From assembly GCF_036492425.1 (NCBI RefSeq), contig NZ_AP025298.1:1-64000 (forward strand): DNA of 64,000 nt, written 5' to 3'. The DNA is from Persicobacter psychrovividus (lineage in GTDB: Bacteria > Bacteroidota > Bacteroidia > Cytophagales > Cyclobacteriaceae). Positions 4,518 to 21,572 of this stretch are shown piece by piece (position 1 is the first letter of the stretch; each line of letters opens with the position of its first letter). The translations under genes and the position numbers were made by a program. The notes below the pieces were generated by a model. That model made no database searches and was not told the DNA's origin. It worked only from the letters and a program-made list of their open reading frames with translations.

Positions 4518-4522
4518 AACGC

Positions 4523-4924: not shown

Positions 4925-6597
4925 TTCGCTTTAGTGGCTAAAAATACCCCATGTCCATGGTTCACTCGTCCGCCCAAAGGCAAACGGCCGGCTTTCAAAT
5001 CCTCAATCGCCAGGCGTAAAGCTTCCTTGGCATTTTCATCTTCGATCTTGGTGGTGTTCCACTGAATTTTGAGTGGGATTTCAGCCTCAGTTGCTGCAAC
5101 CATCTCATTGAATAAAGCACCATTGAAAGCCCCGCCACGGAAGCGGTCAATTTTCACGTGGTTAAACAGCTGTTCTTTCACCTGAGCAGCATCAATGAAA
5201 ACATCAGGAATAACGACTGTTCCCTTGCGTTTGTCCTTGACATCCTCGCCGGCACGTTGTCGCTCTTTTTCATCTGGGGAGAGGTCTCTGGAAAAACCAA
5301 ACAGCTCAGAAATACCCGCATTGTTTTCCTCGGTTCCTTTGCGTTCGAGCTTGCCTTTTTCGTGTGCTAACCACTTTTCAATTTGCTCCTTTTTGTATGC
5401 CAGCAACTGCTCCACTTTTTCATCTTTTGCCACCCTTCGGATCTCATTGACCTTGCTTGGGTATTCAGTAGATTTCATTCCGGAACGATTCTCCGCCACC
5501 TGTGCTTCTTTGCGGATCAGTTCAATCAGCTCATCCATGTATTGCTGTTTCTTGCGGGCAAATTCTTCCTGTAAAGCTGCCTGCAATTGTTCCTGATCAA
5601 GTTGATTGGCAAAACAACCGGCCAGTTTATTGTAGTGATAAGCCGCCCGGTGACGCAAAGCTCCCTTGATTGAAGTGCCCGGAATCAATACCGACTCTTT
5701 TTGTTCCAGGTCAATTTTACCCTGTGCATAATGGAACTTGGCTTCTTTTTTATAGATGCTATCCACCTTGAAGGGCTTGTCGTCTTCGGTTCGGATTTCA
5801 TGGCTGCTGTACATTTTCCCAAAACCAGCACCCATCGAGAAGAAATCCTTTGCTTTAAGGCTCAGGTTGATTTGCTCCCAGTTTGGATCGCTTTCGGTGG
5901 TCGGCTCGAAAGGCTTCAAAGCATCCACTTTCTGATTCAAATCCATCGGATAGTTTGCCCATGCCTGCAAGTCGTCCGCCTTGCTCAAATCATAAGAGGC
6001 CGTTTGTGCATCGATCACCTTGAACTGCCCTTTTCCCGAACGGGTATTGCCGCCGACCAAAAAGCTGTCTGCATAAAAGGCATTCAAAAGCGATTGCCAG
6101 TCGGAATTTTCCTCTGCCATTCCTTGCAAACAGATCTCAAAACGGAAACGTGCGCCTGCGGGTAAAACTTCCTCATCGAATTTACCTTTATCCACCGCTG
6201 ATCCTTTGTCGGAAATTCTTACCCGCTCACGGATAAATGACATCGACACCACCTGCTCAATCTCCTCCCGGTTTTTCATGTATTCCTGCGCCGTCTGCAT
6301 GATGCGGTTATCAACACCAATCAGTGAGGCATTGGATAAAATTACCCTTGAGCCTTCTCCTTCATCATTTCCCAATCCTTGATGACCGAATAACTGGTTG
6401 GCTTTTTCTTCTCCAGCTAATTCCGTCAGGCGGGAACGCAAAATTCCTGTCAGTGAAGTGCCTGGGATAGCGGGCATGCCGAAAGCATCACGATAAATAG
6501 GCTGATCGGAAATCCAGTCCTGTTGGCCCGTACCGATTTTGAGTGGTGAAGTGGTTTCTATGTCCAGGCGGGCGATATATTTTATTGGATAGCTCAT
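4921..6597 (-). CDS. Double Cas7 (RAMP) fusion subunit
   Basis: Protein of 558 residues with two RAMP/Cas7 modules. Module 1 begins at residue 1 and carries IGTGQQ, SDQPIYRD and IPGTSLTGILRSRL; module 2 begins near residue 245 and carries IPGTSIKGALRHRA. The C-terminus has the glycine-rich loop GGRVNHGHGVF. Csm3-like modules of this type cut target RNA at 6-nt intervals; the Asp in SDQP is a candidate catalytic residue. A two-Cas7 fusion recalls Cas7-2x of III-Dv systems. A charged helical insertion (about 330-420) separates parts of module 2. ATGA overlaps couple it to csx10 upstream and the small gene downstream. Confidence 0.82.
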   Translation of the reverse strand: MSYPIKYIARLDIETTSPLKIGTGQQDWISDQPIYRDAFGMPAIPGTSLTGILRSRLTELAGEEKANQLFGHQGLGNDEGEGSRVILSNASLIGVDNRIMQTAQEYMKNREEIEQVVSMSFIRERVRISDKGSAVDKGKFDEEVLPAGARFRFEICLQGMAEENSDWQSLLNAFYADSFLVGGNTRSGKGQFKVIDAQTASYDLSKADDLQAWANYPMDLNQKVDALKPFEPTTESDPNWEQINLSLKAKDFFSMGAGFGKMYSSHEIRTEDDKPFKVDSIYKKEAKFHYAQGKIDLEQKESVLIPGTSIKGALRHRAAYHYNKLAGCFANQLDQEQLQAALQEEFARKKQQYMDELIELIRKEAQVAENRSGMKSTEYPSKVNEIRRVAKDEKVEQLLAYKKEQIEKWLAHEKGKLERKGTEENNAGISELFGFSRDLSPDEKERQRAGEDVKDKRKGTVVIPDVFIDAAQVKEQLFNHVKIDRFRGGAFNGALFNEMVAATEAEIPLKIQWNTTKIEDENAKEALRLAIEDLKAGRLPLGGRVNHGHGVFLATKAN

Positions 6598-8030
6598 AGG
6601 TTCTCTTTTTTACAACGTTTGGCAATTTCGGAGGCAACAAACTGCAGGTATTCCATCGTTACCTGATCGCCGTGACTGTTACAGATTTGATCGGCTTTCT
6701 CTTCCAATGTTTTGCGTGATCTTCTCCATTTGTGTTCATTGACCCCATGATACAAATAGCCCCAGCCATCAGTAAACAGATAGGTTTTCAGGTCTTTGTA
6801 CTTTTTGAATTGTTTGGCTGACTTTCGGATGTGCCCCCATTGCGAGGCTCCGATCATTTTAAATTCATGATCGTTCTCTTGGATGAATTTCATCGCATCC
6901 TTTTCAGTATCATTCTGCTCTTTGGCTTGCTGTTGCTGAAGGTTCAAAAACTGCAACAAAGCATCTTTTTCATCTGGTTTGACCGTATGCTCGGTTTGCT
7001 GATCGATTGCTCCTTTTTTATTGAAGCCAGAATCTATTACCACGGCACCTGCTTCGGCAATCAAAAAGCTTGGGTTAAACAACACTCTTCCCAAACCTTC
7101 AGCCTGAAAAGCTCCCACGAAAAATGGTACTTCCACTTCCTGATCACAATCAAAAACCCAAACGGAACCCTTGCTTGTTACCTGTCTTTCGGCATCCAAA
7201 GTGTTGCGTTTGCCATTCCACAATCGGTAGCTGTGATTTCGGCTTTGGGTCTTTTCCGGATCCAATTCCAAATCAGCCGGCAAACCAAAATCCGATGCCT
7301 GTGGGTTAAAATTGGGCAAGCCGAATTCATCCAAGAAACAACAATCACTTTGGGCATACACCCAGATTTTACCGTGGATTGGTTTTACTTTTTGGGTGGT
7401 GATTTCTTTGCACTGTAAATCCTCACAGGTGATTTCAATCAGACCATATTGCGAAGCTCTGGAACGGCCAACGCGGTGGGTACCCTGCAAAGCTTCTTTG
7501 ATTTGTTGCAAATCTTCCACCTGCTCAGCAGTTACCTCAAATTGCCACTGACTGTTTTTAGGCAAGCTGAAATAGCCATACATCTGACTGTCCTTGGACT
7601 TGCGTTTGTCTTCATCATAAGCTGATTTGATACTGAAGTTCTGATCAATTTCTACCTTTCCGAAGTTATTGAAAAAGCCGGCACGTTGTTGCTTTAGCTG
7701 TCCCCCTTCCTCGGCTATGGCAAAGTCTTCATGCCCAAAAAGATAAACGGCTTCATCGCCATTTTTCACTTTTCGCTGTCGGTAGCTGAAAGGTGTTGGG
7801 GTGGTCGGCTTACTGTTCACCAATGGATAGGCATTGCCAAACTGGACTTTGGTCGAGTGAAAAAGCCTTTGAGTTTGGCTTTCGTCCTTGCCGTACAAAG
7901 CCTTGGCGGTGATGCCCAAAAATTTCACGCCCGGAATATAATCCAGGCTTTTATGGAAGCCCTCGGTGGCTGAGGTTTGACTCAGCACGATGTCGGACTT
8001 CAGTGTACATTTAAAAATATAACTGAACAT
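6594..8030 (-). CDS. csx10: Csx10, Cas5-like subunit of type III-D
   Basis: Protein of 478 residues. The N-terminal TLKSDIVLSQ plus LDYIPGVKFLG, and the glycine-rich THRVGRSRASQYG near residue 190, fit Csx10, the Cas5-like RAMP that defines subtype III-D and caps the crRNA 5' handle. The C-terminal 120 residues are charged and helical, possibly standing in for a small-subunit function. Between cas7 (3 bp gap) and the double cas7 (4 bp overlap). This gene together with the HD-less Cas10 is the main reason for calling the locus III-D. Confidence 0.78.
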   Translation of the reverse strand: MFSYIFKCTLKSDIVLSQTSATEGFHKSLDYIPGVKFLGITAKALYGKDESQTQRLFHSTKVQFGNAYPLVNSKPTTPTPFSYRQRKVKNGDEAVYLFGHEDFAIAEEGGQLKQQRAGFFNNFGKVEIDQNFSIKSAYDEDKRKSKDSQMYGYFSLPKNSQWQFEVTAEQVEDLQQIKEALQGTHRVGRSRASQYGLIEITCEDLQCKEITTQKVKPIHGKIWVYAQSDCCFLDEFGLPNFNPQASDFGLPADLELDPEKTQSRNHSYRLWNGKRNTLDAERQVTSKGSVWVFDCDQEVEVPFFVGAFQAEGLGRVLFNPSFLIAEAGAVVIDSGFNKKGAIDQQTEHTVKPDEKDALLQFLNLQQQQAKEQNDTEKDAMKFIQENDHEFKMIGASQWGHIRKSAKQFKKYKDLKTYLFTDGWGYLYHGVNEHKWRRSRKTLEEKADQICNSHGDQVTMEYLQFVASEIAKRCKKENL

Positions 8031-8033
8031 GGA

Positions 8034-8594
8034 TTATTTCATTTTGATGCGACAACGGCCCAATCCACGGTTGCGATTGAAGCCCACTAATTTTACCAAA
8101 GCAAAAGCAGTCTTGAAGATCTCCTGCGTACGCTCGAAGCTGATTTGCTCATGATGCTCGACCATGATTTTGCCTTCCAGTTCCACTGCCGTAGCCGCTT
8201 CCATGGTTCTTAAACTCTGTTCGACCGCCAATCCTTCGGCATCGATTTTTGTGCTGGCGATCTTGCGGAATAAAAAGTGTTGTTTGCCCTGAATCGCTTC
8301 ACGCATACCTGCCGGCATCTGGGCATCAGTGAAAAAGCAAATCGATGGCTGACCCTGCGCCTCTTTTTGGTTTCCGGTTCCCTGTAAAAGTTCAAATTCC
8401 TGATCGGTAACTAATCCCGTGGCATTCATCTGACGAAGTGCGGTAACGAGCAATCCCTTGATGGTTTTTCCCGGTAAAAATGGACAACCGTCAGCATCCT
8501 TGATCGTCAGCTGATCGGCTTCGGCACCTGCAGACAACCCACTGCCGGCATGCCAGTCGCTTAAAAATTGTATTTGATAGCCTATACTTTTCAT
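8034..8594 (-). CDS. cas7: Short Cas7 (Csm3-like) RAMP subunit
   Basis: Protein of 186 residues, a minimal single RAMP domain. It opens with YQIQFLSDWHAGSG, then EADQLTIKDADGCPFLPGKTIKG, the usual Csm3-type order of a glycine turn, an Asp-containing loop and an (I/L)PG-x-x-hKG loop, and closes with FNRNRGLGRCRI as the glycine-rich loop. Expected to be a crRNA-binding backbone subunit with possible target RNA cleavage through the Asp. ATGA overlap with cas10 and 3-bp spacing to csx10 place it inside the operon. Confidence 0.82.
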   Translation of the reverse strand: MKSIGYQIQFLSDWHAGSGLSAGAEADQLTIKDADGCPFLPGKTIKGLLVTALRQMNATGLVTDQEFELLQGTGNQKEAQGQPSICFFTDAQMPAGMREAIQGKQHFLFRKIASTKIDAEGLAVEQSLRTMEAATAVELEGKIMVEHHEQISFERTQEIFKTAFALVKLVGFNRNRGLGRCRIKMK

Positions 8595-10237
8595 GATACT
8601 TCCACCGTTTGGTTCGTTTTGGATTTACTTTTTTTGCCCATGGCTTCCACTTCCAGACCAATTGCTTTAAGCGACAGAATATCAATGATCTGACCTACTT
8701 TCTGCGCCTGTGCCTGCAATCGAGGATTATTCACCCCTGTTTTCTCCGCTGGATTTGGGAAATCCATGTGATCAAACAAACCAAGGCTCGCCACTTCTCG
8801 CCCTTTGGTCGAACGCATACGGTTCAGGTGCTGATCGGCAATGGCCTTGCTGTTGAACATCTCGGTTACCCAGGTTCGCAAGTGCGCACGGATTTCTTTA
8901 TTATAAACAATCTGATGATAAGCACTTAACAAATCATCAATGATGAATTCCTGTGGCCTTTTTTGCTCATCTTCTGGATTGACGATTTCAGGTTTTGAAA
9001 GGAAGTAAGGGCCACCTTTGAATACCACCGGCTCATTTTTATCGAAAACATGGGAGGTCAATTGCAACTCCTCAATCATTTTGTAATCTTCTACAAAGCT
9101 CGACTCCACCCGGTGGAACATCAAGCAGGATGGTGGTAAAGCCGTAAGATCATCTTTATTTATATAAGCATCGGACTTAGCGACTTTCTTGGCTTCTTTA
9201 CAAAGCCCTTCAGCCAAATGCAAACCATAATGCATCGGGTATTTTTTCTTGATAAAAGCAATCCCCGCACAAACGGTCAGCCCTTGATCCAGAATTTTAC
9301 GGACAGCCGGATTTTCACATGGGATCTGCTTAAATTCCGCTTTGGTCTCTTCCTCAAAAAATCTGGAATACCATTTGACAAACTCCAATGAATGTTCGGT
9401 ACTCATGGCAAGGGTCAAATCATCTCCCCCCAAAATAATAGGCACAATGTCCTTGTCAGTCAATTTCAGATGATCCACCGCACGTCGGGTGGCGTTCTCA
9501 TTCGCTATATCCAAATGACGAGAAAAAGCACCTAACACTTCACCGAAAGGTCCCTTATTCAATTCTCTATTAAAAGTCTGAATGACCTGCCCCAAACCGT
9601 TACCATCGGCATGAATGACCGCCATCCAGGATTTATCATTTTTCAGCACCGAAATCGCTTTTCCCCGGTCATCTTTCTTACCGAAAAACTTCTCATTCAG
9701 TCGCCCTTTTCCTGCGCTTTGCTTCTGTAAGGTGCCTTCGTCTTTCCCTTCTTTCAGCAAAGGCAAAGCGGTTTCCCTTGACGAACGAATGCCCATCCAT
9801 GCCTCAGGAAAAGTAGTTCCTTTCTGAGCAAAATCAAGGTGCATTCCTTTTTCGAGCTGATAAAAATCCTCTCCGACCGGTTCTCCCGCTACTTTCACCA
9901 CTGCCTGCGAAACAGAAACACCCGTGGCCATATTTCGAACCGCCAAAGGAAATTTCAGTGCAAAAGCCTGACAATCCTCTTGATTAAAAAACAGGCATTT
10001 CACTGATCCGGCTGCACGCTGATAAACTCGCCCAACGACCGATTTATCTTTGCCTATGAGCTGCTGTTTTCCGTCTTGCTCAAAATACAAACCGAGTTCT
10101 TCAAGCACCTGATTCAATAGGGTGGTACACAACTGTTCCACCAGTTCGGAGGCTCCGCCAATATCTCTTAATTTATTGGATTTAAAAATAAAAGATTGAA
10201 TACCATTCACGGAAGCTCCATATAGGAAATTATTCAT
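8591..10237 (-). CDS. cas10: Cas10, type III-D large subunit with intact cyclase palm
   Basis: Protein of 548 residues. It starts directly with YGASVNGIQSFIFKSNKLRDIGGAS, the Cas10/Cmr2 first palm domain, and shows AVIHADGNGLGQ near 207 and the cyclase motif GGDD at 270-273. No N-terminal HD nuclease motif is present, as is usual for subtype III-D. Expected function: target-RNA-activated synthesis of cyclic oligoadenylates that feed Csx1 and are removed by Csx20. A zinc-finger-like Cys pair pattern is not obvious. It lies 58 bp downstream of cas6 in the same direction and overlaps cas7 by 4 bp. Confidence 0.92.
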   Translation of the reverse strand: MNNFLYGASVNGIQSFIFKSNKLRDIGGASELVEQLCTTLLNQVLEELGLYFEQDGKQQLIGKDKSVVGRVYQRAAGSVKCLFFNQEDCQAFALKFPLAVRNMATGVSVSQAVVKVAGEPVGEDFYQLEKGMHLDFAQKGTTFPEAWMGIRSSRETALPLLKEGKDEGTLQKQSAGKGRLNEKFFGKKDDRGKAISVLKNDKSWMAVIHADGNGLGQVIQTFNRELNKGPFGEVLGAFSRHLDIANENATRRAVDHLKLTDKDIVPIILGGDDLTLAMSTEHSLEFVKWYSRFFEEETKAEFKQIPCENPAVRKILDQGLTVCAGIAFIKKKYPMHYGLHLAEGLCKEAKKVAKSDAYINKDDLTALPPSCLMFHRVESSFVEDYKMIEELQLTSHVFDKNEPVVFKGGPYFLSKPEIVNPEDEQKRPQEFIIDDLLSAYHQIVYNKEIRAHLRTWVTEMFNSKAIADQHLNRMRSTKGREVASLGLFDHMDFPNPAEKTGVNNPRLQAQAQKVGQIIDILSLKAIGLEVEAMGKKSKSKTNQTVEVS

Positions 10238-10295: not shown

Positions 10296-10964
10296 TTATT
10301 TATTCCATTTAGACACCACACCATAGCCAAATCCTGTTTTTCGTCCCAGTCCAATAGCTTGAGGCAAACACACATTAGTTTTAAAAATAATATCAAAAAT
10401 CAGCATTTTCTGCTTTTTGAATGTGCTGCTTTGTTGATTAATTATATCAATAATCGAACATTCTATCTGATCCTGTATGCGCCAATCCAATCCTTTGGCC
10501 ATTGCTAAAATATTACCGACCAGTTTACTTTCCAGCATGGCAATTCGCTCAGACAGCCATTCCTTTTCTTGATACACTTTAAGCGTTTCAGAACTCAACG
10601 GCATCCACGATCTAATAATGTATTGCTTTTTTTCTTTCTGAACGGCCAGCTGAATATCTTTCATGTTGAAATCGGTAATTTCCATCGGAATTTTTCTTCC
10701 CGAAACCTCAATTGCCCAGTCTTTATTCAGAAAGAATTCCCGCACAGATTCCATTCCTTCTCCCAGGCATACTAAAGAAGCATTTCCTTTTATCCTTTTG
10801 TACTGAATCAAGGGATAGGCGTAGCGTAATTTATCACCATCGTGATTATGGAACAGCACAGAGCTGCGTGGGACCTTTGCTGAAATAGCCCCTCTGAAGG
10901 CGGGAACCTCATGAAATTTGATAGGCGCATCAAATTTCACGGTAAGATATTTTATTTGCTTCAT
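10296..10964 (-). CDS. cas6: Cas6 crRNA-processing endoribonuclease (Cas6b-like)
   Basis: Protein of 222 residues. The C-terminal PQAIGLGRKTGFGYGVV is the glycine-rich loop typical of Cas6, and the overall pattern matches the Bacteroidota Cas6b-like family. It would cut each repeat 8 nt before its end, leaving an ATTAAGAC 5' handle. A histidine near the N-terminus (HEVPAFRG) is a candidate catalytic residue. The gene has its own promoter-operator (10988-11024), so cas6 through csx1 may be one transcript controlled separately from cas2. Confidence 0.85.
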   Translation of the reverse strand: MKQIKYLTVKFDAPIKFHEVPAFRGAISAKVPRSSVLFHNHDGDKLRYAYPLIQYKRIKGNASLVCLGEGMESVREFFLNKDWAIEVSGRKIPMEITDFNMKDIQLAVQKEKKQYIIRSWMPLSSETLKVYQEKEWLSERIAMLESKLVGNILAMAKGLDWRIQDQIECSIIDIINQQSSTFKKQKMLIFDIIFKTNVCLPQAIGLGRKTGFGYGVVSKWNK

Positions 10965-11025: not shown

Positions 11026-11493
11026 TTAAATAATTATAGACCCTTTAGTCTTTATTGCCATATCAAAATCAACCTGTTGTCCAATTAATTTCATGCGATT
11101 GACTTCACTCTCTGAAACAGGGATGATCATGATTGAATCATTGTTCTCATAAAGTGATTGAACCTCTTTAAGGTCCTGGGCAATCTGCTGATAAAGTTTA
11201 GCTTTTAGGCTACCTAAAAACACCGATTTTTGAACCCGGATCATGCCCTTTTCAATCAGAAACTTTGCAATTTCTTTTCTGACTTTATTGTCAGTGATAT
11301 CATACATGATAAAGCAGAGCATTTCGGTACTTTTCTTTTTTTGATATTTTTTAAATAAATCCAATACGGATGAAATACGAGCGTCCAATTGCGCTATCTC
11401 ATTACCTTCGGGTATCAAGGGGGCGTCTGTAGGCAATGCATTTTTCTTGATCACCTTCAGCCTTTGGTAGAGTGAAATATTACTTTTTTTCAT
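11026..11493 (-). CDS. cas2: Cas2 adaptation endonuclease with N-terminal extension
   Basis: The Cas2 core begins near MLCFIMYDITDNKVRK (about residue 57 of 155) with the conserved YDI Asp, then RVQKSVFLGSL and a C-terminal FDMAIKT segment. About 55 extra residues precede the usual start; they are charged and may be a real extension. I chose the ATG at 11493 (MKKSNIS) over the longer frame because it avoids the divergent promoter. Cas2 forms the integrase with Cas1, which here is about 4 kb away on the other strand. Confidence 0.88.
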   Translation of the reverse strand: MKKSNISLYQRLKVIKKNALPTDAPLIPEGNEIAQLDARISSVLDLFKKYQKKKSTEMLCFIMYDITDNKVRKEIAKFLIEKGMIRVQKSVFLGSLKAKLYQQIAQDLKEVQSLYENNDSIMIIPVSESEVNRMKLIGQQVDFDMAIKTKGSIII

Positions 11494-11504
11494 TAAGAAT
11501 ACTT

Positions 11505-11541
11505 TAGTGCACAATCACTACACTTTAAGCCCGTAAATTTA
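11505..11541 (+). promoter_or_regulatory. Operator-promoter of the primase-polymerase gene
   Basis: 21-bp site 11505-11525 (TAGTGCA-N7-TACACTT), which agrees with the DUF4236 site at 18 of 21 positions by eye. It is followed after 8 bp by TAAATTTA (11534-11541) as the -7 box; the start codon is 26 bp further on. It lies in the divergent region between cas2 and the primase-polymerase gene. No -7 box at the matching distance is seen on the cas2 side. Confidence 0.65.
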
Positions 11542-11567: not shown

Positions 11568-12608
11568 ATGATCTCATTTGGCACTAACATTCGTTCGAAA
11601 GAAGTGATGAAAAACCTCACTTTGCAGCAGTTGGTTAACTATTTGCAAACAGACACCTCATTGCGGCAACAATGTAATCAATTAAAGGAAATATTGCACC
11701 TTGATGCTGAAAAATATAGAAATCAGAAGTGCTTTTTACCCTATTTTTTAGGGGCGGAATTTCAAGGGAATCTCCGGAACACCCAAAACTTCATTTGCAT
11801 CCAATATTTCATGTTGGATCTGGATCATTTGAGTCAGGCAGGACTTGAAGTGACTCTGTTAAAGCAAAAATTGGCCATGGTCCCCGAATTGATGTTAGGT
11901 TATGTTTCGCCGAGCGGTGACGGCCTTAAATTGCTTTTTAAGCTTGGTCAGAAAATCACTAACTCAAAGTACTTTTCGGACTTCTACACCCTTTTTGCCC
12001 GACATTTTTTCCAGACCCACCGGCTTGAAAATGTAGGCGATATGAAAACCAAGGATGTCAGTCGAGTGAGTTTCGCGGCTTATGATCCTGATTTATATTT
12101 TAACCCCAATGCAATGACTGTGAACCCTGAAAAAATTTTACCGATGGAAATGTGGCAAGCCCCTACTTTGGAAGTTGATGAGCAACCCACTGATGAAACA
12201 ACAGTAGTAGAAGTGGATGCGGACACGATGGCTAAGATCCGTGCAAAACTCAACCCCAACTTCAAAAAGCCAAGCAAGGAGAAAAAATACTTTGTCCCGG
12301 AGGCTTTGGAGCAGGCTGAGATTGGATTGGCCAAACGACTTCAGCATTTTGGGATTAAGCTGGGGGAAGTTCGACCGATCAATTATGGGAAGAAATTTTT
12401 GTTTGAGCTGGGGATCAAGTTTGCTGAGCTGAATGTTTTCTACGGAAAAAATGGCTTTTCGGTAGTGATCTCTCCCAAGCGTGGGCATGATGCAGAGTTA
12501 TCTCAGATTGTTGAGCAACTGATGTGGGAGCATTTGTATCAGGTGCCGCAACATCAGACGCCAAACAAGCCGGTGATGCGGGTGATCCGCAATGAGGAGG
12601 CTTCGTAG
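11568..12608 (+). CDS. CRISPR-associated primase-polymerase type B (CAPP)
   Basis: Protein of 346 residues. The opening ISFGTNIRSKEVMKNLTLQQ, the acidic motif FMLDLDH near 84 and SPSGDGLKLLF near 117 match the Bacteroidota 'CRISPR-associated primase-polymerase type B' family, related to archaeo-eukaryotic primases and BT4734-like/VirE N-terminal domains. The C-terminal 130 residues form a separate small domain after a proline- and acid-rich linker. CAPP enzymes of other CRISPR loci make and extend DNA and RNA primers and are thought to act in spacer acquisition or repair of capture intermediates. The gene has a regulon promoter and is divergent from cas2. Confidence 0.82.
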   Translation: MISFGTNIRSKEVMKNLTLQQLVNYLQTDTSLRQQCNQLKEILHLDAEKYRNQKCFLPYFLGAEFQGNLRNTQNFICIQYFMLDLDHLSQAGLEVTLLKQKLAMVPELMLGYVSPSGDGLKLLFKLGQKITNSKYFSDFYTLFARHFFQTHRLENVGDMKTKDVSRVSFAAYDPDLYFNPNAMTVNPEKILPMEMWQAPTLEVDEQPTDETTVVEVDADTMAKIRAKLNPNFKKPSKEKKYFVPEALEQAEIGLAKRLQHFGIKLGEVRPINYGKKFLFELGIKFAELNVFYGKNGFSVVISPKRGHDAELSQIVEQLMWEHLYQVPQHQTPNKPVMRVIRNEEAS

Positions 12609-13020: not shown

Positions 13021-13107
13021 ACAGAATATTATTTGGTGATGCTAATTACAATTTTGGTTGTGCGACAGCCCCAAAATAAGAGTGACAAAATATTAAACTT
13101 TAAAAAC

Positions 13108-13632
13108 ATGATTCATACTTTTATTACCCACCGCCATATTTTTCATGCAGACGATGTACTTAGTTTTGCTTTGGTTCGAAAATATATCAACCCTGAGCTG
13201 AAGCTTAAACGCATGGCGCATTATGTAAAATCAGATGCGCTTGATGCGCAAACCATTATGGTGGATGTGGGTCGCAAATATGATGGTAAACAATATTTTG
13301 ACCATCATCAGGATAGTCATTTGCCTGCCTCCTGCGTGCTTATATTGGATATTATTCCGATTGATGAATTATTGAAAGATTTTTTCAAGTCAAAAATGCG
13401 TGTGGTTTCGGATACCGACCGAGGATTGACCCAGAATAAGTTGGCACATATGGAGGTGGATATGGGTGAAATCATCAGCCTGAATAAAATCATCAAGAGC
13501 TTTAACCGTCAGCCTAAAGATCATGCCCTACAAAAGCAGCAATTCTTAATGGCGGCTGATTTATGTGATCAGCTGATTGACAATTGGGTGCATGAGTTTG
13601 AATATCAACCAAAATATATGAGCCTAAAATAA
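13108..13632 (+). CDS. Short MYG1/UPF0160-like metal-dependent phosphoesterase
   Basis: Protein of 174 residues, start chosen at ATG 13108 (MIHTFITHRH). Motifs ITHRHIFHADDVLSFAL (residues 5-21), DVGRKYDG and FDHHQDSH near residue 68 are those of the MYG1 family, DHH-related enzymes for which 3'-5' RNA exonuclease activity is known in eukaryotes. Chromosomal family members are about 290-340 residues, so this one is roughly the N-terminal half. It sits between the primase-polymerase and the pre-cas1 genes, in the same direction. A role in trimming nucleic acid for adaptation, or in nucleotide signalling, is only inferred. Confidence 0.68.
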   Translation: MIHTFITHRHIFHADDVLSFALVRKYINPELKLKRMAHYVKSDALDAQTIMVDVGRKYDGKQYFDHHQDSHLPASCVLILDIIPIDELLKDFFKSKMRVVSDTDRGLTQNKLAHMEVDMGEIISLNKIIKSFNRQPKDHALQKQQFLMAADLCDQLIDNWVHEFEYQPKYMSLK

Positions 13633-13684: not shown

Positions 13685-13708
13685 TAATGTAAACCAAACC
13701 AAAATCAG

Positions 13709-13969
13709 ATGCCTCAATCATTGCCTTCCTTTTTGATTTCCTCAAATACCTGGCAGGCATCTGTGCGTGTGGTTCTGAATAGTCTTTATCAACTGAATAT
13801 TTATGAATGGACATTTCTATTGATGGGTATTGTCCATTACCTGTTAGTTGAATGGATCTTCGACACCTATTCCTCAGAAGTTGTAATCAATGAACAGATT
13901 CAATCTTATTGGCTGGAATATTTTTATCATTCCATCCGCTTCAATAATTGTTCCACCTCAATCAAGTGA
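13709..13969 (+). CDS. Small hydrophobic protein of unknown function
   Basis: Protein of 86 residues with one hydrophobic segment (WTFLLMGIVHYLLVEWIF, about 33-51) that may be a membrane helix or a buried core. No family recognised. Support for being real: a strong regulon promoter 25 bp upstream of the ATG, and only 2 bp between its TGA and the ATG of the next gene. It may be a small partner of the following protein or a translated leader. Confidence 0.5.
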   Translation: MPQSLPSFLISSNTWQASVRVVLNSLYQLNIYEWTFLLMGIVHYLLVEWIFDTYSSEVVINEQIQSYWLEYFYHSIRFNNCSTSIK

Positions 13970-13971
13970 TC

Positions 13972-15267
13972 ATGAACTCAACCACGACCAACCGTTCGAC
14001 TGCTCAACAAATCCATCAATTGCGTAAAAACGGACAGCTTTCAGAAGCCTATCAAATGGGCAAAACTGAGTACACCGAACGTCCGGAAGAGGAAGGGCTG
14101 AAGGATGCACTCGGCTGGTCTGTTTGGGCATTAATGCGGAAAAGTATTGCTGATGATCAACTGGAACAGGCCCTATTGCACTGGGAGGAATGTATTGCGT
14201 TGACGGAAAATGAAATGTTGTCCACTCAATTGGCCTGGAATGCCTATAAATTGCTGCAAACACTAAAAGCGATGGGTGCGCACCGTCCAGCAGGCCTATT
14301 GGGTAAGGTTTTCTCTTTATTGGAAAAAACGCCTTATCAGAAGCGCGAGCAGGTTCATGGGTATCTGTTGAATGCTTTTTTGGGATTGGAATCTGTTAGC
14401 GAACAAGAGGTCTTATCTGCCCTGCCTGTTTTTAGTTGGGATGCTTTTAAGAAAGAAGATGCTGCCAAGTATCATAATAATGGAAAGGTTTTTCCTGGGG
14501 CTCTGGAGCGTTGGGTGTATTTGGTGTGTAAGAGTTTAGGGAAATTGCATGCCCAACATCCGGAGGAGGTTCGTCCGCTGGTTGAAGCGCTCATTCGCCG
14601 AATGGTCTCCTTAGAAGACTGGGCTTGTTCGTGGGATTTTTACCACTATAAACTGGCACAACTTCATCTGTTGCTTGGGCAGGGTGTTGAGGCACGGAAG
14701 TCTGCTTTGGCTTTCCTACCCAAAAAAAGCAGTGAGTACTGGGCCTGGCAGTTGTTGGCCAATACCTTTGAGCGGGATTCTGAGCAGAGGGAGCAAGTAC
14801 TGTTATATGCCTATACCAATTTCCGTGGAGAGGCGGCTTTCACTCTTGGGCTGTTGAAGGATTTGGGGGGAATTTATTACCGCAAAAAGCAATATGCTAC
14901 GGCTAAATTTTTCTTTGAGAAAAACCTGGACATTCGAGAAAAAGCAGGTTACCCGACGGATCGGTGGCGGGAAAAATTACAGGAAATTCCTGACTATGAT
15001 GTTTTGGCGGCCATCGCCCCGACGGAGGATCATTTAAAAACCTGTGCGGAATTCTCTGAAAAGGTGAGTAAGCAGTCGATGGAACAACGGAAGTTCAAAG
15101 GACAATTCCGCAAACATGCCAAAGGCTTCGGTTTTGTGGATGATATTTTTGTGCCGACCAAAAAAGCAAACCGTTTGCTAAATGAGCAGACGGTCAAAGG
15201 GATGGCTCGAAAAAGCTGGGACAGCAGGAAATCTTGTTGGGGTTGGTTGGCGACGAAGGTGTATTGA
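13972..15267 (+). CDS. TPR-like helical repeat protein with C-terminal cold-shock-like OB fold
   Basis: Protein of 431 residues, start chosen at ATG 13972 (MNSTTTNRST), 2 bp after the previous stop. The N-terminal 350 residues look like a helical repeat (QLRKNGQLSEAYQMGK, then alternating helices). Near the C-terminus, FKGQFRKHAKGFGFVDDIFVP resembles a CSD/S1-type nucleic-acid-binding OB fold, ending in a tryptophan-rich SWDSRKSCWGW tail. Similar helical-repeat plus OB proteins occur in conflict systems, but I cannot name a family firmly. It lies 74 bp upstream of cas1 in the same direction, suggesting a link to adaptation or RNA capture. Confidence 0.62.
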   Translation: MNSTTTNRSTAQQIHQLRKNGQLSEAYQMGKTEYTERPEEEGLKDALGWSVWALMRKSIADDQLEQALLHWEECIALTENEMLSTQLAWNAYKLLQTLKAMGAHRPAGLLGKVFSLLEKTPYQKREQVHGYLLNAFLGLESVSEQEVLSALPVFSWDAFKKEDAAKYHNNGKVFPGALERWVYLVCKSLGKLHAQHPEEVRPLVEALIRRMVSLEDWACSWDFYHYKLAQLHLLLGQGVEARKSALAFLPKKSSEYWAWQLLANTFERDSEQREQVLLYAYTNFRGEAAFTLGLLKDLGGIYYRKKQYATAKFFFEKNLDIREKAGYPTDRWREKLQEIPDYDVLAAIAPTEDHLKTCAEFSEKVSKQSMEQRKFKGQFRKHAKGFGFVDDIFVPTKKANRLLNEQTVKGMARKSWDSRKSCWGWLATKVY

Positions 15268-15341
15268 TGTGGCGGGAAATTGGTTAGGCAGTACTCTTTT
15301 GCAGTTTCTATTCTGTGCTTATTTACTTAAAACAATCCATC

Positions 15342-16349
15342 ATGGCAATACAACTTTATCTCAATTCCTATGGTATGAACCTGTCGGTTAAGGATGGTAT
15401 TTTTCATATCAAGACCAAAGAAGGAAGCAAATCGGTCAGTCCGATAAAGCTCGACACCATTTTTATTCAGAAAGGGATTTCTACCACTGCCGATGCCATT
15501 ATTCTGGCGATTCAAAATCAGATTGCCGTGGTGTTTGTAGATCGCAACGGCAACCCTGTTGGGCGGGTGTGGTCCAATCAGTATGGCTCCATTGCTACTA
15601 TCCGGAAAAACCAACTGCTCTTTTCTCAGTCTGATGAGGTAACGTCGTGGGTCGTTCAACGGCTGACCGATAAAATGGATGGACAGCTGGCGGTACTGAT
15701 GAGTCTGCAGACCAGTTTTGACCCTGAACCTCATCTGAAACAGGGACAAGACATTATTTTTCAGCAAAAAAGCAAGTTAGAAAAAACGCCTGTGGTTTCG
15801 ATCAAAAAAATGGCTTCTACACTTCGGGGGATTGAAGGAACGGCCTCCCGTGCTTACTTTGAGGCCGTCAGTAAAAGTCTGCCCGAACCTTATCGCTTTA
15901 AGGGAAGAAGCCAACACCCCGGACTTGACCGGTTCAATGGTGCTTTGAACTATGCTTATGGTATGTTATATACCGAAGTAGAATCTGCATTGGTGAAAGC
16001 AGGGATTGATCCGTATGTAGGATTTATGCACCGCGACGAACACAACAAGCCTGTTTTGACTTATGATGTGATTGAAAAATACCGGGTGTGGGCGGATTAT
16101 GTGATTATTAAGCTGTGTCTGGAAGAGGTTTTATTCGAAGAGTTTTTCGAGGTACAACCCAATGGCGCGTATTACCTTGGGCCTGAAGCCAAACGTATTG
16201 TTATTCAATGCATGGACGATTTTTTGTACGAACCTACCCTCTTCAAAGGAAAACAAGTCAGCCGGAAAGATCAAATATCAGCCTTTTGCACCTCTTTTGC
16301 CCAAGAGCTCAAGGCCATCAATGACCAGAAAGAAGAACCGCCATTTTAA
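15342..16349 (+). CDS. cas1: Cas1 integrase
   Basis: Protein of 335 residues. Start chosen at ATG 15342 (MAIQLYLNSYGMNLSV), which matches the usual Cas1 N-terminus; an upstream GTG would add 9 unlikely residues. The C-terminal domain shows GTASRAYFEA, the LNYAYGMLYTEVESAL helix, GIDPYVGFMHRD and KPVLTYDVIEKYR, covering the conserved Glu, His and Asp/Glu metal ligands. No reverse transcriptase fusion. With Cas2 it inserts new spacers at the leader end of the array, which begins 394 bp downstream. Confidence 0.95.
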   Translation: MAIQLYLNSYGMNLSVKDGIFHIKTKEGSKSVSPIKLDTIFIQKGISTTADAIILAIQNQIAVVFVDRNGNPVGRVWSNQYGSIATIRKNQLLFSQSDEVTSWVVQRLTDKMDGQLAVLMSLQTSFDPEPHLKQGQDIIFQQKSKLEKTPVVSIKKMASTLRGIEGTASRAYFEAVSKSLPEPYRFKGRSQHPGLDRFNGALNYAYGMLYTEVESALVKAGIDPYVGFMHRDEHNKPVLTYDVIEKYRVWADYVIIKLCLEEVLFEEFFEVQPNGAYYLGPEAKRIVIQCMDDFLYEPTLFKGKQVSRKDQISAFCTSFAQELKAINDQKEEPPF

Positions 16350-16743
16350 CCACCCCTAAAATATAACAGAGTCTGTTATTTTTATTTATTGATTTACGCC
16401 TTGGCATTATAATACAACCATAATGCATTTAAGTCATATAAATTGAAAACGATTTCTCATTTTAATGGGATCTGTTGTGCCATAAGCCTACTCACTTAAT
16501 TTTCAGCAATAATATAATTTTTACAATGCATACACATATATTATTAAAAATAGGGCATTATTTTAATGACTATTTTGATATTTGTTACTTTAATGAAAAA
16601 GTGCTAACTTTGCATCGCAAAACATATTTTGTACTTTTCAAATAATGATTGCACTTTGTTCTTTGATTTCTTGTTTTTTAAAGAACAAAAACCGCTCTCA
16701 CAGCCTATTAACAGGTATTTTTCGAAAATCGCAAAAATCACCT
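16350..16743 (+). promoter_or_regulatory. CRISPR leader with pre-crRNA promoter
   Basis: AT-rich 394-bp region between cas1 and the first repeat. A core promoter is visible: TTTG at 16581-16584, a 20-bp gap and TAACTTTG (exact TAnnTTTG) at 16605-16612. An inverted repeat GTTCTTT / AAAGAAC (16658-16664 and 16680-16686) lies about 57 bp before repeat 1 and may mark the integration or anchoring element of the leader. An AAGTGC half-site at 16599 is present, but its spacing does not fit the regulon operator. Confidence 0.65.
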
Positions 16744-19700
16744 CTCCGAGTCAGCATCCAATACAAAAGGGATTAAGACGTAATCAATCCCTCTTTGTGG
16801 GCTTCCTCAAGTAGCCTCCGAGTCAGCATCCAATACAAAAGGGATTAAGACATTAAGAAGTAATGCTTTAGAGTCCTGCACGGACTTCCTCCGAGTCAGC
16901 ATCCAATACAAAAGGGATTAAGACTCAAAATAACGAGCCCAATATACATTTATTATTGTTACTCCGAGTCAGCATCCAATACAAAAGGGATTAAGACTTG
17001 CCGGGGTGTTGAATTTAATAGTTGTCATTTTAATAAAACTCCGAGTCAGCATCCAATACAAAAGGGATTAAGACAGTGCGCAAGGTATTATGAGGAATAC
17101 CCAAAGGATGACTCCGAGTCAGCATCCAATACAAAAGGGATTAAGACCACGGACTTCAAAGTAGTTGCTTCAATTCCCTTTAGCTCCGAGTCAGCATCCA
17201 ATACAAAAGGGATTAAGACCGCCTATCTGTTTCGAATTACTTTGCAAAATACTCTAACTCCGAGTCAGCATCCAATACAAAAGGGATTAAGACTGCTCAA
17301 GACATATGCACTTTTGTAGAAACGACACCTTTCTCCGAGTCAGCATCCAATACAAAAGGGATTAAGACCCTCTTATTATTTACTTACCGAAGCTTTTAAC
17401 TTCGGCTCCGAGTCAGCATCCAATACAAAAGGGATTAAGACTGGGTAACGCAATCGAAAACACATTTGAAACAGTACTCCGAGTCAGCATCCAATACAAA
17501 AGGGATTAAGACTGTATTACTACGGTTCACCCCTTTAAAAGAAAAACCTCCGAGTCAGCATCCAATACAAAAGGGATTAAGACCGTTCCAATTTGGATCC
17601 GCATCCGCGAGATTCAGCTTTCCCTCCGAGTCAGCATCCAATACAAAAGGGATTAAGACAGCACTTTTCAGTGCTTGTGCCGTTCACATTCGGCAACTCC
17701 GAGTCAGCATCCAATACAAAAGGGATTAAGACGAGGTGTAACTACCGTTTCCGATAGTTTATCCAGTCCTCCGAGTCAGCATCCAATACAAAAGGGATTA
17801 AGACCACATATCAGCAGGGCACTCATTATAGTGCATTCCAAATCTCCGAGTCAGCATCCAATACAAAAGGGATTAAGACTTTCGTCATGGTAGTTATTCG
17901 TTGGTGTTGGTGTCTCCTCCGAGTCAGCATCCAATACAAAAGGGATTAAGACTCCCATCTTTAGAAATCTTTTTGTAGATTTCGTTCTCTCCCTCCGAGT
18001 CAGCATCCAATACAAAAGGGATTAAGACGTTGTAGCTTCTACTCCTTTTAATGCGGTTGTTAGTGATTCTCCGAGTCAGCATCCAATACAAAAGGGATTA
18101 AGACTTAGGGTAATCTTTAATTACCTTGCCGTATACTTCATTCTCCGAGTCAGCATCCAATACAAAAGGGATTAAGACCGATAAAGTCCGGTAGCTTTTG
18201 CCATACGAAGACATCGTCTCCGAGTCAGCATCCAATACAAAAGGGATTAAGACACCACCTTCTCCAATTTGCTGAATACAAAGCGGTTAGGCTCCGAGTC
18301 AGCATCCAATACAAAAGGGATTAAGACCTTTACTTTCCCGTTCTTCTTTGTGGTGAAAATCTGCCCACTCCGAGTCAGCATCCAATACAAAAGGGATTAA
18401 GACTTTACCTGACAAGCGATTACCTTGTTTAGTGTACGGGTCTCCGAGTCAGCATCCAATACAAAAGGGATTAAGACAGTACGGTTGTTAATGCTTTCAA
18501 AATTTCCATTTTGCTCTCCGAGTCAGCATCCAATACAAAAGGGATTAAGACATGAAGTCGATTGCGTTAGAAAATGAAAACCCTTTGCTCCGAGTCAGCA
18601 TCCAATACAAAAGGGATTAAGACTAGAGTTTTGTCATTAATGACATATTCTCTCGATCTCCGAGTCAGCATCCAATACAAAAGGGATTAAGACAAGTCTT
18701 TCAAAGATCGATCGTTTCCTGTAAATGTTAAACTCCGAGTCAGCATCCAATACAAAAGGGATTAAGACGCTCTGCGAATTCCCAATCTTGGCTACAAGTA
18801 TTAAGGCTCCGAGTCAGCATCCAATACAAAAGGGATTAAGACTGAGAATGATAGACCTTTGCGATTTGATTTTTTCATGCTCCGAGTCAGCATCCAATAC
18901 AAAAGGGATTAAGACGTGAAAACCAAATAATTCTGCCAATAATCTTCTCCCCCTCCGAGTCAGCATCCAATACAAAAGGGATTAAGACTTACGAAATTCA
19001 ACGCGTTAGAAAATGACAAACCCTTTTCTCCGAGTCAGCATCCAATACAAAAGGGATTAAGACTTGTGTTCAAGACAGATAGATTTTTCAAGGAAAGATA
19101 CTCCGAGTCAGCATCCAATACAAAAGGGATTAAGACTTCTTTGAGTTGCGTTTCGTAAGTGTTAAGGAACCTCCGAGTCAGCATCCAATACAAAAGGGAT
19201 TAAGACTTCTTTGAGTTGCGTTTCGTAAGTGTTAAGGAACCTCCGAGTCAGCATCCAATACAAAAGGGATTAAGACTTATACCCTTTTTCACATTTTTGG
19301 AATTGCTCATTTGATACTCCGAGTCAGCATCCAATACAAAAGGGATTAAGACTATTGGCCTTCTTAGAAGGTCTTACTTTAAGTTTCTACTCCGAGTCAG
19401 CATCCAATACAAAAGGGATTAAGACGGTTCTAATAGAATCTGTGAGAACCAAATAACTTTACTCCGAGTCAGCATCCAATACAAAAGGGATTAAGACAAT
19501 CTCCTAATTTTTGCCATACGAACACGTCGTATGGCTCCGAGTCAGCATCCAATACAAAAGGGATTAAGACGTGGTGAAAATTTGCCCACTCAATTGGGCT
19601 ACCCTCCGAGTCAGCATCCAATACAAAAGGGATTAAGACCTTTTTACCGTTCCCCTTAATTGGGGTATGGTTCAAGGCTCCGAGTCAGCATCCAATACAA

Positions 19701-21471
19701 AAGGGATTAAGACTTAATTCTTGGGCTACTTTTAGGGTTGGTAGCTTTGTTCTCCGAGTCAGCATCCAATACAAAAGGGATTAAGACCAGCGACCGAAGA
19801 GATGAAGAGTTTGTCGTTTACGACTCCGAGTCAGCATCCAATACAAAAGGGATTAAGACTCTAAATGAATTATCTCTGATTAATTCATTAAAACTCCGAG
19901 TCAGCATCCAATACAAAAGGGATTAAGACTCATTGGGTGAGCATTGAATTGATGTAACAAGTAGTCCCACTCCGAGTCAGCATCCAATACAAAAGGGATT
20001 AAGACTGGAGGATACCGAATAACTGATATTGTTCATCAGTTATTCCTCCGAGTCAGCATCCAATACAAAAGGGATTAAGACTCGACTTTATAGATTCTAT
20101 AAAGTCTGAGAGTTTCTGCCTCCGAGTCAGCATCCAATACAAAAGGGATTAAGACGATATGTACTACCACATGGGTAGTAGATTTTCTTACTCCGAGTCA
20201 GCATCCAAGACAAAAGGGATTAAGACAGTAGCTCGTGTACATTTTCGTGATAGGAGCCTTCCTCCTCCGAGTCAGCATCCAATACAAAAGGGATTAAGAC
20301 TCGATACATTGCAGCGCCACGAATGCAAAAGCATTCACTCCGAGTCAGCATCCAATACAAAAGGGATTAAGACACTTGTAAAGTCACCGATAAAAAAGAT
20401 AACTTTGTTCTCCGAGTCAGCATCCAATACAAAAGGGATTAAGACAATGGTATCCGCTTGGAATACCCATCCTAAATATGACCTCCGAGTCAGCATCCAA
20501 TACAAAAGGGATTAAGACACCTTTACGGTGCATACTCCACACTATTTTGCCGTCTCTCCGAGTCAGCATCCAATACAAAAGGGATTAAGACATTTCAAAA
20601 TTTCCATTTCGATATTATTTGTTGGTCTCCGAGTCAGCATCCAATACAAAAGGGATTAAGACGTCTTCGACTCCTTTGATACTTTTAACTTCTTTCCCTC
20701 TCCGAGTCAGCATCCAATACAAAAGGGATTAAGACCATCTCCGCCAATACTTGAAGACCTCTTTCAACCTTAAACTCCGAGTCAGCATCCAATACAAAAG
20801 GGATTAAGACATTTCATCGAATTCCTCTTGGGAATCGATTGACTCATCTCCGAGTCAGCATCCAATACAAAAGGGATTAAGACTTATATGACCTAATTCA
20901 TAGGCTTTTTCAAGCAAGCCTCCGAGTCAGCATCCAATACAAAAGGGATTAAGACACCCATGTCAGTAGACATTTCGAATGTGAAATCAGGGGCTCCGAG
21001 TCAGCATCCTATACAAAAGGGATTAAGACTCTCTTTTCCAGTGGAAGAGAACTGCTTAAGAGCTCTCCGAGTCAGCATCCTATACAAAAGGGATTAAGAC
21101 AACAAATCTTTTAAAGATCTATCATTACCTGTAAAGGTAAGCTCCGAGTCAGCATCCTATACAAAAGGGATTAAGACATGTAGAATACTACAAGGTCTTT
21201 CTTGAAAGACTTCTTCTCCGAGTCAGCATCCTATACAAAAGGGATTAAGACAACATGAAGCCAATTTCTTGGATTTTGCGGTATGGTACTCCGAGTCAGC
21301 ATCCTATACAAAAGGGATTAAGACAACATGAAACCAATTTCTTGGATTTTGCGGTATGGTACTCCGAGTCAGCATCCTATACAAAAGGGATTAAGACCAT
21401 CCGGACATTGACTTAAGCGGACATGATAGGCAATTCTCCGAGTCAGCATCCAATACAAAAGGGATTAAGAC
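16744..21471 (+). CRISPR. CRISPR array, 65 repeats of 36 bp and 64 spacers
   Basis: The repeat starts CTCCGAGTCAGCATCC and ends AAAAGGGATTAAGAC; spacers are 33-41 bp, mostly 35-39. The leader side is at cas1, and the 3' repeat end (handle ATTAAGAC) fits plus-strand crRNA. Sixty-five repeats counted by hand, the first at 16744 and the last at 21436. Repeat variants: the repeat at 20191 has T19 to G, and six consecutive repeats (20994, 21065, 21142, 21216, 21289, 21362) have A17 to T, while the terminal repeat is consensus. One spacer is exactly duplicated in tandem (19137-19170 and 19207-19240), another nearly so with one mismatch (21252-21288 and 21325-21361). Confidence 0.99.
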
Positions 21472-21516
21472 AGCGAGCATTATGAGGGACTTGATTGATC
21501 TGATTGCTAAAAAATA

Positions 21517-21547
21517 AAACCTCTACCTTGTGATAAGGTAGAGGTTT
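21517..21547 (+). terminator. Hairpin terminator after the array
   Basis: Perfect 13-bp stem: AAACCTCTACCTT (21517-21529) pairs with AAGGTAGAGGTTT (21535-21547) across a GTGAT loop, 45 bp past the last repeat. A long T-tract is missing beyond the stem. The symmetric A and T ends suggest it works both for the array and for the converging minus-strand operon. Confidence 0.7.
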
Positions 21548-21549
21548 AT

Positions 21550-21572
21550 GAGTCAGCCTCCAGGACAATAGG
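21550..21572 (+). repeat. Degenerate CRISPR repeat remnant beyond the terminator
   Basis: GAGTCAGCCTCCAGGACAAT plus AGG here matches repeat positions 5-27 (GAGTCAGCATCCAATACAAA plus AGG) with four differences. It is not followed by the GATTAAGAC end. It looks like an old terminal repeat separated from the array by the terminator hairpin. Confidence 0.6.

What the first reader, a model, noticed from the sequence alone, without database searches (positions are those of the whole stretch)
16780..21435. Spacers are strongly enriched in perfect inverted repeats
Reading all 64 spacers by eye, about 15 contain a perfect stem of 6 bp or more with a short loop. Examples: GAATAACTGAT/ATCAGTTATTC (20017-20045, 11 bp), AATGAATTA/TAATTCATT (19864-19889), GACTTTATA/TATAAAGTC (20084-20106), CCATACGA/TCGTATGG (19514-19534), GAAATCT/AGATTTC (17964-17983), TACTACC/GGTAGTA (20162-20180). 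Many others have nested 4-5 bp stems. A rough hand estimate for random 37-mers of this composition gives about 3 of 64 at 6 bp, and well under 1 at 8 bp or more. There are no T-tracts, so they are not simply terminators. Some shared-target spacer pairs keep the hairpin.
Basis: seen in the sequence. Interest (0 to 1): 0.88.

Follow-up and report, generated by a model that had tools for sequence, protein, structure and literature searches.

The report
Hairpin-rich spacers in a CRISPR array
A bacterium's type III CRISPR memory bank really does hold several times more hairpin-forming snippets than chance gives, probably because its memory-making machinery prefers folded single strands, a habit already seen in laboratory type III systems and apparently stronger in the branch that carries a primase-polymerase.

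Summary
16 of 64 spacers carry a perfect stem of 6 bp or more, against 4.1 (SD 1.8) in dinucleotide shuffles, with 0 of 600 shuffles reaching 16. Two type II arrays of the same genome give 0 of 44.

The excess recurs in 17 other loci or genomes with the same CRISPR-associated primase-polymerase (CAPP-B): 109 of 678 spacers, observed/expected 2.19 (95% 1.70-2.65). Other type III arrays give 1.60 (no CAPP, no RT) and 1.36 (RT-Cas1); type I and II 1.2-1.6. Without the window, CAPP-B against other type III has p=0.024 at 6 bp but 0.12 at 7 bp.

Nearly all hairpin spacers read as coding, T-runs are rare, and overlapping spacers show the hairpin is in the target. Spacers are antisense to coding strands, as in other type III arrays. 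Wobble pairs hint at sense-strand folding in the pooled set, not in the window alone.

Best explanation: acquisition favours stem-loops in single-stranded, sense-strand nucleic acid. This is already described for RT-free type III-A adaptation (review PMC9048733) and seems stronger in the CAPP-B lineage. No source element was found, an RNA-phage origin is not supported, and CAPP as cause is unproven. New variant of a known behaviour.

The parts
16744..21471 (+). Type III CRISPR array: 65 repeats of 36 nt, 64 spacers; + is the probable crRNA strand (repeat ends GGGATTAAGAC), leader on the left
   Evidence: orientation inferred from repeat end, AT-rich leader and variant repeats at the right end
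20017..20045 (+). 11-bp perfect stem in spacer 45 (GAATAACTGAT/ATCAGTTATTC)
20084..20106 (+). 10-bp perfect stem in spacer 46; by eye the same target region as spacers 20 and 38 (QKLxDFIESIKS)
19864..19889 (+). 9-bp perfect stem in spacer 43
19514..19534 (+). 8-bp perfect stem in spacer 38; in frame coding PYDVFVW, frame shared with spacer 20
18498..18513 (+). 6-bp stem in spacer 24; in the overlapping spacer 53 one pair becomes a wobble on the sense strand
   Evidence: read by eye
16350..16743 (+). AT-rich leader between cas1 and the first repeat (inferred)
15315..16349 (+). cas1, not fused to a reverse transcriptase
13948..15267 (+). Protein with DUF7017 and S1/cold-shock (TOTE) domain; relatives in several CAPP-B loci
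13033..13632 (+). MYG1-exonuclease-like (UPF0160) protein, partial domain
11568..12608 (+). CRISPR-associated primase-polymerase type B (NF040562, 302 bits, cut-off 200)
11026..11514 (-). cas2 with N-terminal extension (162 aa, Cas2 domain 65-141)
10296..10964 (-). cas6b
8591..10237 (-). Cas10/Cmr2-like protein with GGDD in its sequence
2175..8594 (-). RAMP genes of the type III effector (TIGR03986 family, Csx7/Cmr4-like) and ORFs between them without a family match or not scanned
475..1782 (-). TM1812 (TIGR02221) family CRISPR-associated protein

Best explanation
The spacers are hairpin-rich because the adaptation machinery takes them preferentially from single-stranded segments that fold into stem-loops, on the strand that has the sense of the mRNA (displaced non-template DNA strand or the transcript itself). 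The folded stretch is unfolded and made double-stranded, plausibly by the primase-polymerase CAPP-B, whose studied relatives are DNA primases with strand-displacement synthesis, and Cas1-Cas2 then integrates it. Shown here: the excess, its recurrence in other CAPP-B arrays, its smaller size in other CRISPR arrays, location in open reading frames, antisense orientation, and, for a few overlapping sets, that the hairpin is in the target. Inferred: that the bias arises at acquisition, the single-stranded substrate, and the role of CAPP.
For: 16 of 64 against 4.1 in shuffles. 109 of 678 against 49.8 in 17 other CAPP-B loci/genomes; with one spacer per shared-target cluster, window included, 107 of 693 against 51.5. 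Same-genome type II arrays 0 of 44. 123 of 125 hairpin spacers have an open sense frame (589 of 616 others do too). Antisense to coding: 0.675 of 736 CAPP-B spacers, where the method's ceiling on known phage genes is 0.72. Pooled CAPP-B stems of 8 or more pairs holding one G.T on the sense strand 24 against 7.4, holding one A.C 11 against 8.4 (binomial p=0.008). Spacers offset by a few bases both hold the whole hairpin (L027 12/16, L028 89/126). Selection for target-RNA accessibility should act the other way (inference). Precedent: type III-A adaptation in S. thermophilus and S. epidermidis prefers stem-loop-rich regions, in S. thermophilus on the coding strand (PMC9048733 section 11). CAPPs prime and extend on ssDNA with strand displacement and form complexes with Cas1 and Cas2 (PMC8211822 passages).
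Against: No protospacer was found, so the stem density of the source genomes is unknown. Of 17 other CAPP-B groups, three larger ones show little or no excess (L033 7 vs 5.7, L149 4 vs 3.0, G878 6 vs 5.4) and so do four with fewer than 10 spacers (L023, L025, L034, L040). Other arrays also lie at 1.2-1.6x, so part of the excess is a general property of natural sequence, and the intervals of CAPP-B and other type III overlap. At 8 bp or more the other CAPP-B spacers (1.5%) are no richer than tiles of PTm1 (1.3%) or M13 (1.6%). Antisense orientation is shared by type III arrays without CAPP (0.670 of 288), so it says nothing about CAPP. The wobble asymmetry is absent in the window alone (G.T 2, A.C 3), other mismatch classes are also about 2x (A.G 16 vs 7.8, like-with-like 34 vs 18.0), and whole-spacer folding energies do not differ between strands. 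No preferred hairpin position was seen, apart from an excess of stems ending exactly at a spacer end.
Confidence: 0.58

Rival explanations
1. The source elements are themselves unusually structured (for example ssRNA phages), and the spacers are a fair sample of them.
For: MS2, Qbeta, PP7 and AP205 show 1.8-2.4x at 6 bp or more and 1.5-1.6x at 5 bp, very like CAPP-B spacers. Seven degenerate target patterns met no true hit in the viral contig collection (the three hits seen lie in another frame or on the wrong strand).
Against: No YGDD, MGNG or DLSxASD-like polymerase motif in 741 spacers, where I would expect several of each if all came from 4-kb leviviricete genomes (the expectation is my arithmetic); two spacers read GDD (L028 CGDDIIA, L029 GEGDD), without the usual tyrosine. 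The window, L033 and most of the L028 array have no significant match in a phage collection that holds about 1,300 ssRNA phage records; diverged targets would be missed. No reverse transcriptase among the six genes 10296-16349. In RNA phages G.T and A.C stems are both in excess, unlike in the pooled CAPP-B set.
Confidence: 0.16
2. The hairpins are made during acquisition by snap-back copying: the primase-polymerase extends a folded-back 3' end, so one arm is not in the target.
For: A primase-polymerase sits among the adaptation genes. Stems run up to 11 bp.
Against: Both arms lie in one open reading frame that is conserved between spacers 20 and 38 and, by eye, 46 (DVFVWQKLxDFIESIKS). Differently placed spacers hold the same whole hairpin (L027 12/16, L028 89/126). 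These are few sets; most hairpin spacers have no partner.
Confidence: 0.05
3. The excess is the general mild excess of inverted repeats in natural DNA, inflated in this array by chance and by choosing the most striking case.
For: Other arrays and DNA phages show 1.2-1.6x at 6 bp or more. The window was picked because it looked extreme.
Against: 0 of 600 shuffles reach the count. The 17 other CAPP-B groups were not picked for hairpins and give 2.19 (1.70-2.65); without the window, CAPP-B against all other arrays has p=0.008 at 6 bp and 0.05 at 7 bp by permuting genome labels.
Confidence: 0.15
4. Spacers come from intrinsic terminators or attenuators of invader transcripts.
For: Type III-A adaptation is reported to favour attenuators (PMC9048733).
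Against: Stem followed by a T-run: 1 of 125 hairpin spacers on the sense strand, 6 of 125 on the crRNA strand, 0 of 16 in the window; 123 of 125 have an open sense frame.
Confidence: 0.03

Closest known systems
Stem-loop preference of RT-free type III-A adaptation (S. thermophilus, Zhang et al. 2021; S. epidermidis, Aviram et al. 2022; read through review PMC9048733 section 11, primary papers not seen)
   Same: Type III, no reverse transcriptase in the adaptation genes, spacers from stem-loop-forming stretches and from the coding strand; not seen for type II in the same host.
   Different: There: new spacers in experiments, enriched at ssos, oriT, rRNA/tRNA and riboswitch regions of plasmids and host. 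Here: a natural array, hairpins inside open reading frames of unknown invaders, primase-polymerase among the adaptation genes.
CRISPR-associated primase-polymerases, CAPP class B (PMC8211822, passages read)
   Same: Same protein family (NF040562) near cas1 and cas2 in a Bacteroidota type III locus.
   Different: That study describes enzyme activities; the word hairpin does not occur in its main text and the passages I saw report no spacer bias.
RT-Cas1 type III systems (L083/L169, L084, L086, L172, L174)
   Same: Type III with a polymerase in the adaptation module.
   Different: Weaker and uneven hairpin excess (15 of 126 against 11.0, 9 of the 15 from L174), weaker antisense signal (0.557 of 115, array orientation partly uncertain); the window has no RT.
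Systems with the nearest Cas1 outside CAPP-B (L107-L113, L115)
   Same: Related Cas1 and, in most, related repeats.
   Different: L107-L111 have Cas3, and L108, L109 and L111 Cas8b, so type I-B-like; L112 and L113 were not classified. Stems of 7 bp or more 1 of 225; no clear strand bias (L108, L109, L111, L113, L115: 0.40-0.62).

Membership tests
Type III adaptation with stem-loop preference | type III effector with cas1-cas2 and no reverse transcriptase in the adaptation genes | tested here: met
   Cas10, RAMPs, Cas6b, Cas2, Cas1; the six genes from 10296 to 16349 scanned with Pfam, no RT
Type III adaptation with stem-loop preference | spacers enriched in stem-loop sequences | tested here: met
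   16 of 64 against 4.1
Type III adaptation with stem-loop preference | not shown by type II arrays of the same host | tested here: met
   0 of 44 against 0.8; low power, spacers there are 29-31 nt
Type III adaptation with stem-loop preference | spacers from the coding strand | tested here: met
   window 0.667 (SE 0.059) of 63, ceiling 0.72; could also reflect selection
Type III adaptation with stem-loop preference | new spacers shown to come from folded ssDNA | not testable with these tools
   needs an acquisition experiment
CAPP class B | curated family score over cut-off | tested here: met
   302 bits, cut-off 200
CAPP class B | lies near cas1 and cas2 of a type III locus | tested here: met
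   cas2 11026-11514, CAPP 11568-12608, cas1 15315-16349 with two genes between
CAPP class B | complex with Cas1-Cas2, primase activity | not testable with these tools
   known for relatives only (PMC8211822)
RT-dependent RNA spacer acquisition | reverse transcriptase fused or next to Cas1 | tested here: not met
   Cas1 344 aa with Cas1 domain only; no RT among its neighbours scanned
Memory of Leviviricetes RNA phages | spacers matching known ssRNA phages or their polymerase motifs | tested here: not met
   two GDD-containing peptides without the full motif
Intrinsic terminators | T-run after the stem | tested here: not met
   0 of 16 in window

The most novel reading that the evidence does not exclude
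CAPP-B makes the adaptation module a collector of folded single strands: stem-loops in sense-strand ssDNA or RNA are the favoured prespacer source, and the primase-polymerase turns them into integrable duplex, so that the CAPP-B lineage carries a stronger structure bias than other type III, type I or type II systems.
Probability: 0.3. Interest if true: 0.72.

Novelty: new variant of a known kind. Interest (0 to 1): 0.5.

Why it matters
It is still open how type III systems without a reverse transcriptase make prespacers, and what CAPP does in living cells. If natural CAPP-B arrays keep a readable record of substrate folding and strand, the question becomes testable from sequence and by one deletion experiment. 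It would also extend the laboratory finding of stem-loop preference to natural arrays in another phylum.

Tried and rejected
Snap-back origin, terminators and an RNA-phage origin were tested and set aside.

Protospacer search: array against phages and plasmids (only chance-level matches at E 5), arrays of L033 and most of L028 against phages (E 0.2 or worse), array against 196 genomes of the family (only two first-look candidates per genome were scored and the list was cut; the hits I looked at are other CRISPR arrays or short chance-level matches), seven degenerate patterns in viral contigs (two hits in another frame; none; one hit on the wrong strand of a phage gene), two composite peptides by tblastn (one match at E 9; none). 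Diverged or unsequenced sources would be missed.

Hairpin position in the spacer: no preference for a place within the spacer, but stems ending exactly at a spacer end were 12 and 14 against 4.1 and 3.5, as if longer stems were cut. An early reading that antisense bias marks CAPP-B was dropped: the first comparison group turned out to be mostly type I-B-like, and type III arrays without CAPP have the same bias.

Sampling of controls: 20 regions from the Cas9 search (42 of 149 genomes positive); 20 regions from the Cas10 search (31 of 395 genomes positive), with more Cas10 regions; 8 regions from the Cas3 search (10 of 149 genomes positive); 8 of the 22 plasmid records, two near-identical Rhodothermus plasmids merged as one. 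The type III controls are therefore partly from other phyla (Nostoc, Pseudanabaena, Thermus, Deinococcus, Arcobacter, Fusobacterium, Rhodothermus), and the two Nostoc arrays may serve a type I-D system beside the type III one. Arrays were found in 11 of the 24 loci. Rows dropped: a 60-nt non-CRISPR repeat in L063, a 33-nt one in L060, a misparsed 24-nt array in L082 (3 of 9 at 6 bp or more), a non-CRISPR repeat in L177, and L068, L071, L096 (36-40-nt repeats with mostly 26-30-nt spacers, not clearly type III; 1 of 7, 0 of 9, 1 of 11). Duplicate spacers and spacers over 50-60 nt were left out. The array finder is my own script and needs exact 20-mers, so very degenerate arrays are missed.
Full report
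What is there. The window holds a type III CRISPR locus of a Bacteroidota bacterium; the tool lists as same family a genome (G127) whose contig has the length of that of Algoriphagus kandeliae (L033; lineage). Reading leftwards from the array: cas1, a protein with DUF7017 and an S1/cold-shock domain, a MYG1-like protein, CAPP-B, cas2, cas6b, Cas10, RAMP genes and a TM1812-family protein. The array has 65 repeats and 64 spacers.

The observation. 16 of 64 spacers have a perfect stem of 6 bp or more. Dinucleotide shuffles give 4.1 (SD 1.8), and 0 of 600 reach 16; at 8 bp or more it is 4 against 0.23. Random 37-mers from real sequence give 26, 35, 33, 39 and 22 of 400 (window outside the array, two unrelated viral contigs, L028 and L033 outside their arrays); AT-rich phage genomes give 11.7% (PTm1) and 14.8% (FLiP) of tiles, so raw percentages depend on composition and I rely on observed/expected. 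Two type II arrays of the same genome give 0 of 44 against 0.8.

Does it recur? I gathered CAPP-B loci by family search and by a scan of genome contigs and more through a repeat-array search of the family, and found arrays in 17 other loci or genomes with 678 distinct spacers: 109 have stems of 6 bp or more against 49.8 expected (2.19, bootstrap over genomes 1.70-2.65), and 37 have 7 bp or more against 12.4 (2.99, 1.87-4.26). The largest array, L028, has 29 of 126 against 10.1. Three larger groups show little or no excess: L033 (7 against 5.7), L149 (4 against 3.0) and G878 (6 against 5.4); four groups of fewer than 10 spacers (L023, L025, L034, L040) say nothing. Keeping one spacer per shared-target cluster, window included, leaves 107 of 693 against 51.5.

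Controls. With the same method: type III without CAPP or RT 35 of 298 against 21.9 (1.60, 1.12-2.18); RT-Cas1 type III 15 of 126 against 11.0 (1.36, 0.53-2.20), 9 of the 15 from Pseudanabaena (L174); arrays with the nearest Cas1 but no CAPP, mostly type I-B-like, 17 of 225 against 11.1 (1.54) but 1 of 225 at 7 bp or more; other type I 13 of 212 against 10.5; type II 14 of 330 against 8.6. Permuting genome labels, CAPP-B against other type III gives p=0.026 at 6 bp and 0.092 at 7 bp; against all others 0.008 and 0.038. Without the window, which was chosen for the feature, the values are 0.024, 0.115, 0.008 and 0.050. So CAPP-B arrays stand out, but the contrast with other type III arrays is moderate. 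DNA phage genomes give 1.2-1.5x at 6 bp or more and 1.9-4.2x at 8 bp or more.

Where the hairpins sit. 123 of 125 hairpin spacers have an open frame on the strand opposite to the crRNA (589 of 616 others do too), and in the window no stem is followed by a T-run. Overlapping spacers show that the hairpin belongs to the target: spacers 20 and 38 and, by eye, 46 read the same frame (DVFVWQKLxDFIESIKS) through the stems of 38 and 46; L027 spacers 12/16 and L028 spacers 89/126 are offset by a few bases and hold the same complete stem. Snap-back synthesis is not needed for these sets.

Which strand folds. A codon-usage test, right 72% of the time on known phage genes.675 of 736 CAPP-B spacers antisense to coding. 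Type III arrays without CAPP give 0.670 of 288 and RT arrays 0.557 of 115 with partly uncertain orientation; the mostly type I-B-like group shows no clear bias. This is a type III property, by selection or acquisition. In the pooled CAPP-B set, stems of 8 or more pairs with one G.T on the sense strand are in excess (24 against 7.4); stems with one A.C, which would be wobble pairs on the other strand, are not (11 against 8.4; binomial p=0.008). Other mismatch classes are about 1.6-2x, the window alone shows no asymmetry, and whole-spacer folding energies do not differ between strands, so this is suggestive only. Spacers 24 and 53 are an example: the change between them turns one pair into a wobble on the sense strand.

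Source. No protospacer was found in phages, plasmids, viral contigs or 196 family genomes (limits in Tried and rejected). ssRNA phage genomes do have a similar stem excess (1.8-2.4x), which made an RNA-phage source attractive, but 741 spacers hold no YGDD, MGNG or DLSxASD-like motif; two read GDD, and the arrays searched match none of about 1,300 ssRNA phage records.

Mechanism. The most likely reading is a bias at acquisition for folded single-stranded substrate. This was reported for RT-free type III-A systems in experiments: preference for stem-loop regions and, in S. thermophilus, the coding strand, not shared by type II (review PMC9048733 section 11; primary papers not read). CAPPs are DNA primases and polymerases with strand displacement, prefer DNA templates, and form complexes with Cas1 and Cas2 (PMC8211822, passages), so they are suited to copying a folded ssDNA into duplex. 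That CAPP causes the stronger bias is inference.

Novelty. Eight paper searches listed, as far as titles and abstract starts show, no report of hairpin-enriched natural spacers or of a CAPP link to them; the library lacks most subscription journals. I read one section and passages of PMC9048733 and passages of PMC8211822, PMC10415136 and PMC5513706. I rate it a new variant of a known behaviour.

Noticed in passing
window 21472-21572: After the last full repeat come a spacer-like stretch, a strong terminator-like hairpin (21517-21547) and a degenerate repeat remnant (about 21550-21572), probably the old end of the array.
   Followed up: partly
window 13033-15267: A MYG1-like protein and an S1/cold-shock (TOTE) protein with DUF7017 lie between CAPP-B and cas1; relatives of the S1/CSD protein sit after cas2 in Algoriphagus, Belliella and Lunatimonas CAPP-B loci. 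Possible RNA or ssDNA handlers in adaptation. No MYG1 relative was seen in the other loci.
   Followed up: partly
L028 11610-20903: Eleven of 126 spacers hit one stretch of about 30-40 residues of one unknown protein family in many sequence variants (TKKDPKVSIFLYFVEAGTVKVRASSYN); a strong hot spot or primed acquisition.
   Followed up: partly
window 19137-19240 and 21252-21361: Spacers 33/34 are identical neighbours and 62/63 differ by one base.
   Followed up: no
window 20994-21397: The six repeats from 20994 to 21362 each differ by one base from the consensus (A to T in the sequence), marking an old block.
   Followed up: no
window 11026-11514: Cas2 is long (162 aa), as in CAPP-B loci (about 148-182 aa open frames) and in the type III-A locus L082 (207 aa); beside the nearest non-CAPP Cas1 the cas2 frames are about 100-135 aa.
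   Followed up: partly
window 32418-33460: Two nearly identical 163-aa ORFs in tandem.
   Followed up: no
G000 contig C12 (L048, L049): The same genome has two Cas9 genes with arrays near them.
   Followed up: partly
L174: The Pseudanabaena RT-Cas1 plasmid arrays show a hairpin excess of their own (9 of 61 against 3.3), unlike the other RT-Cas1 arrays.
   Followed up: no
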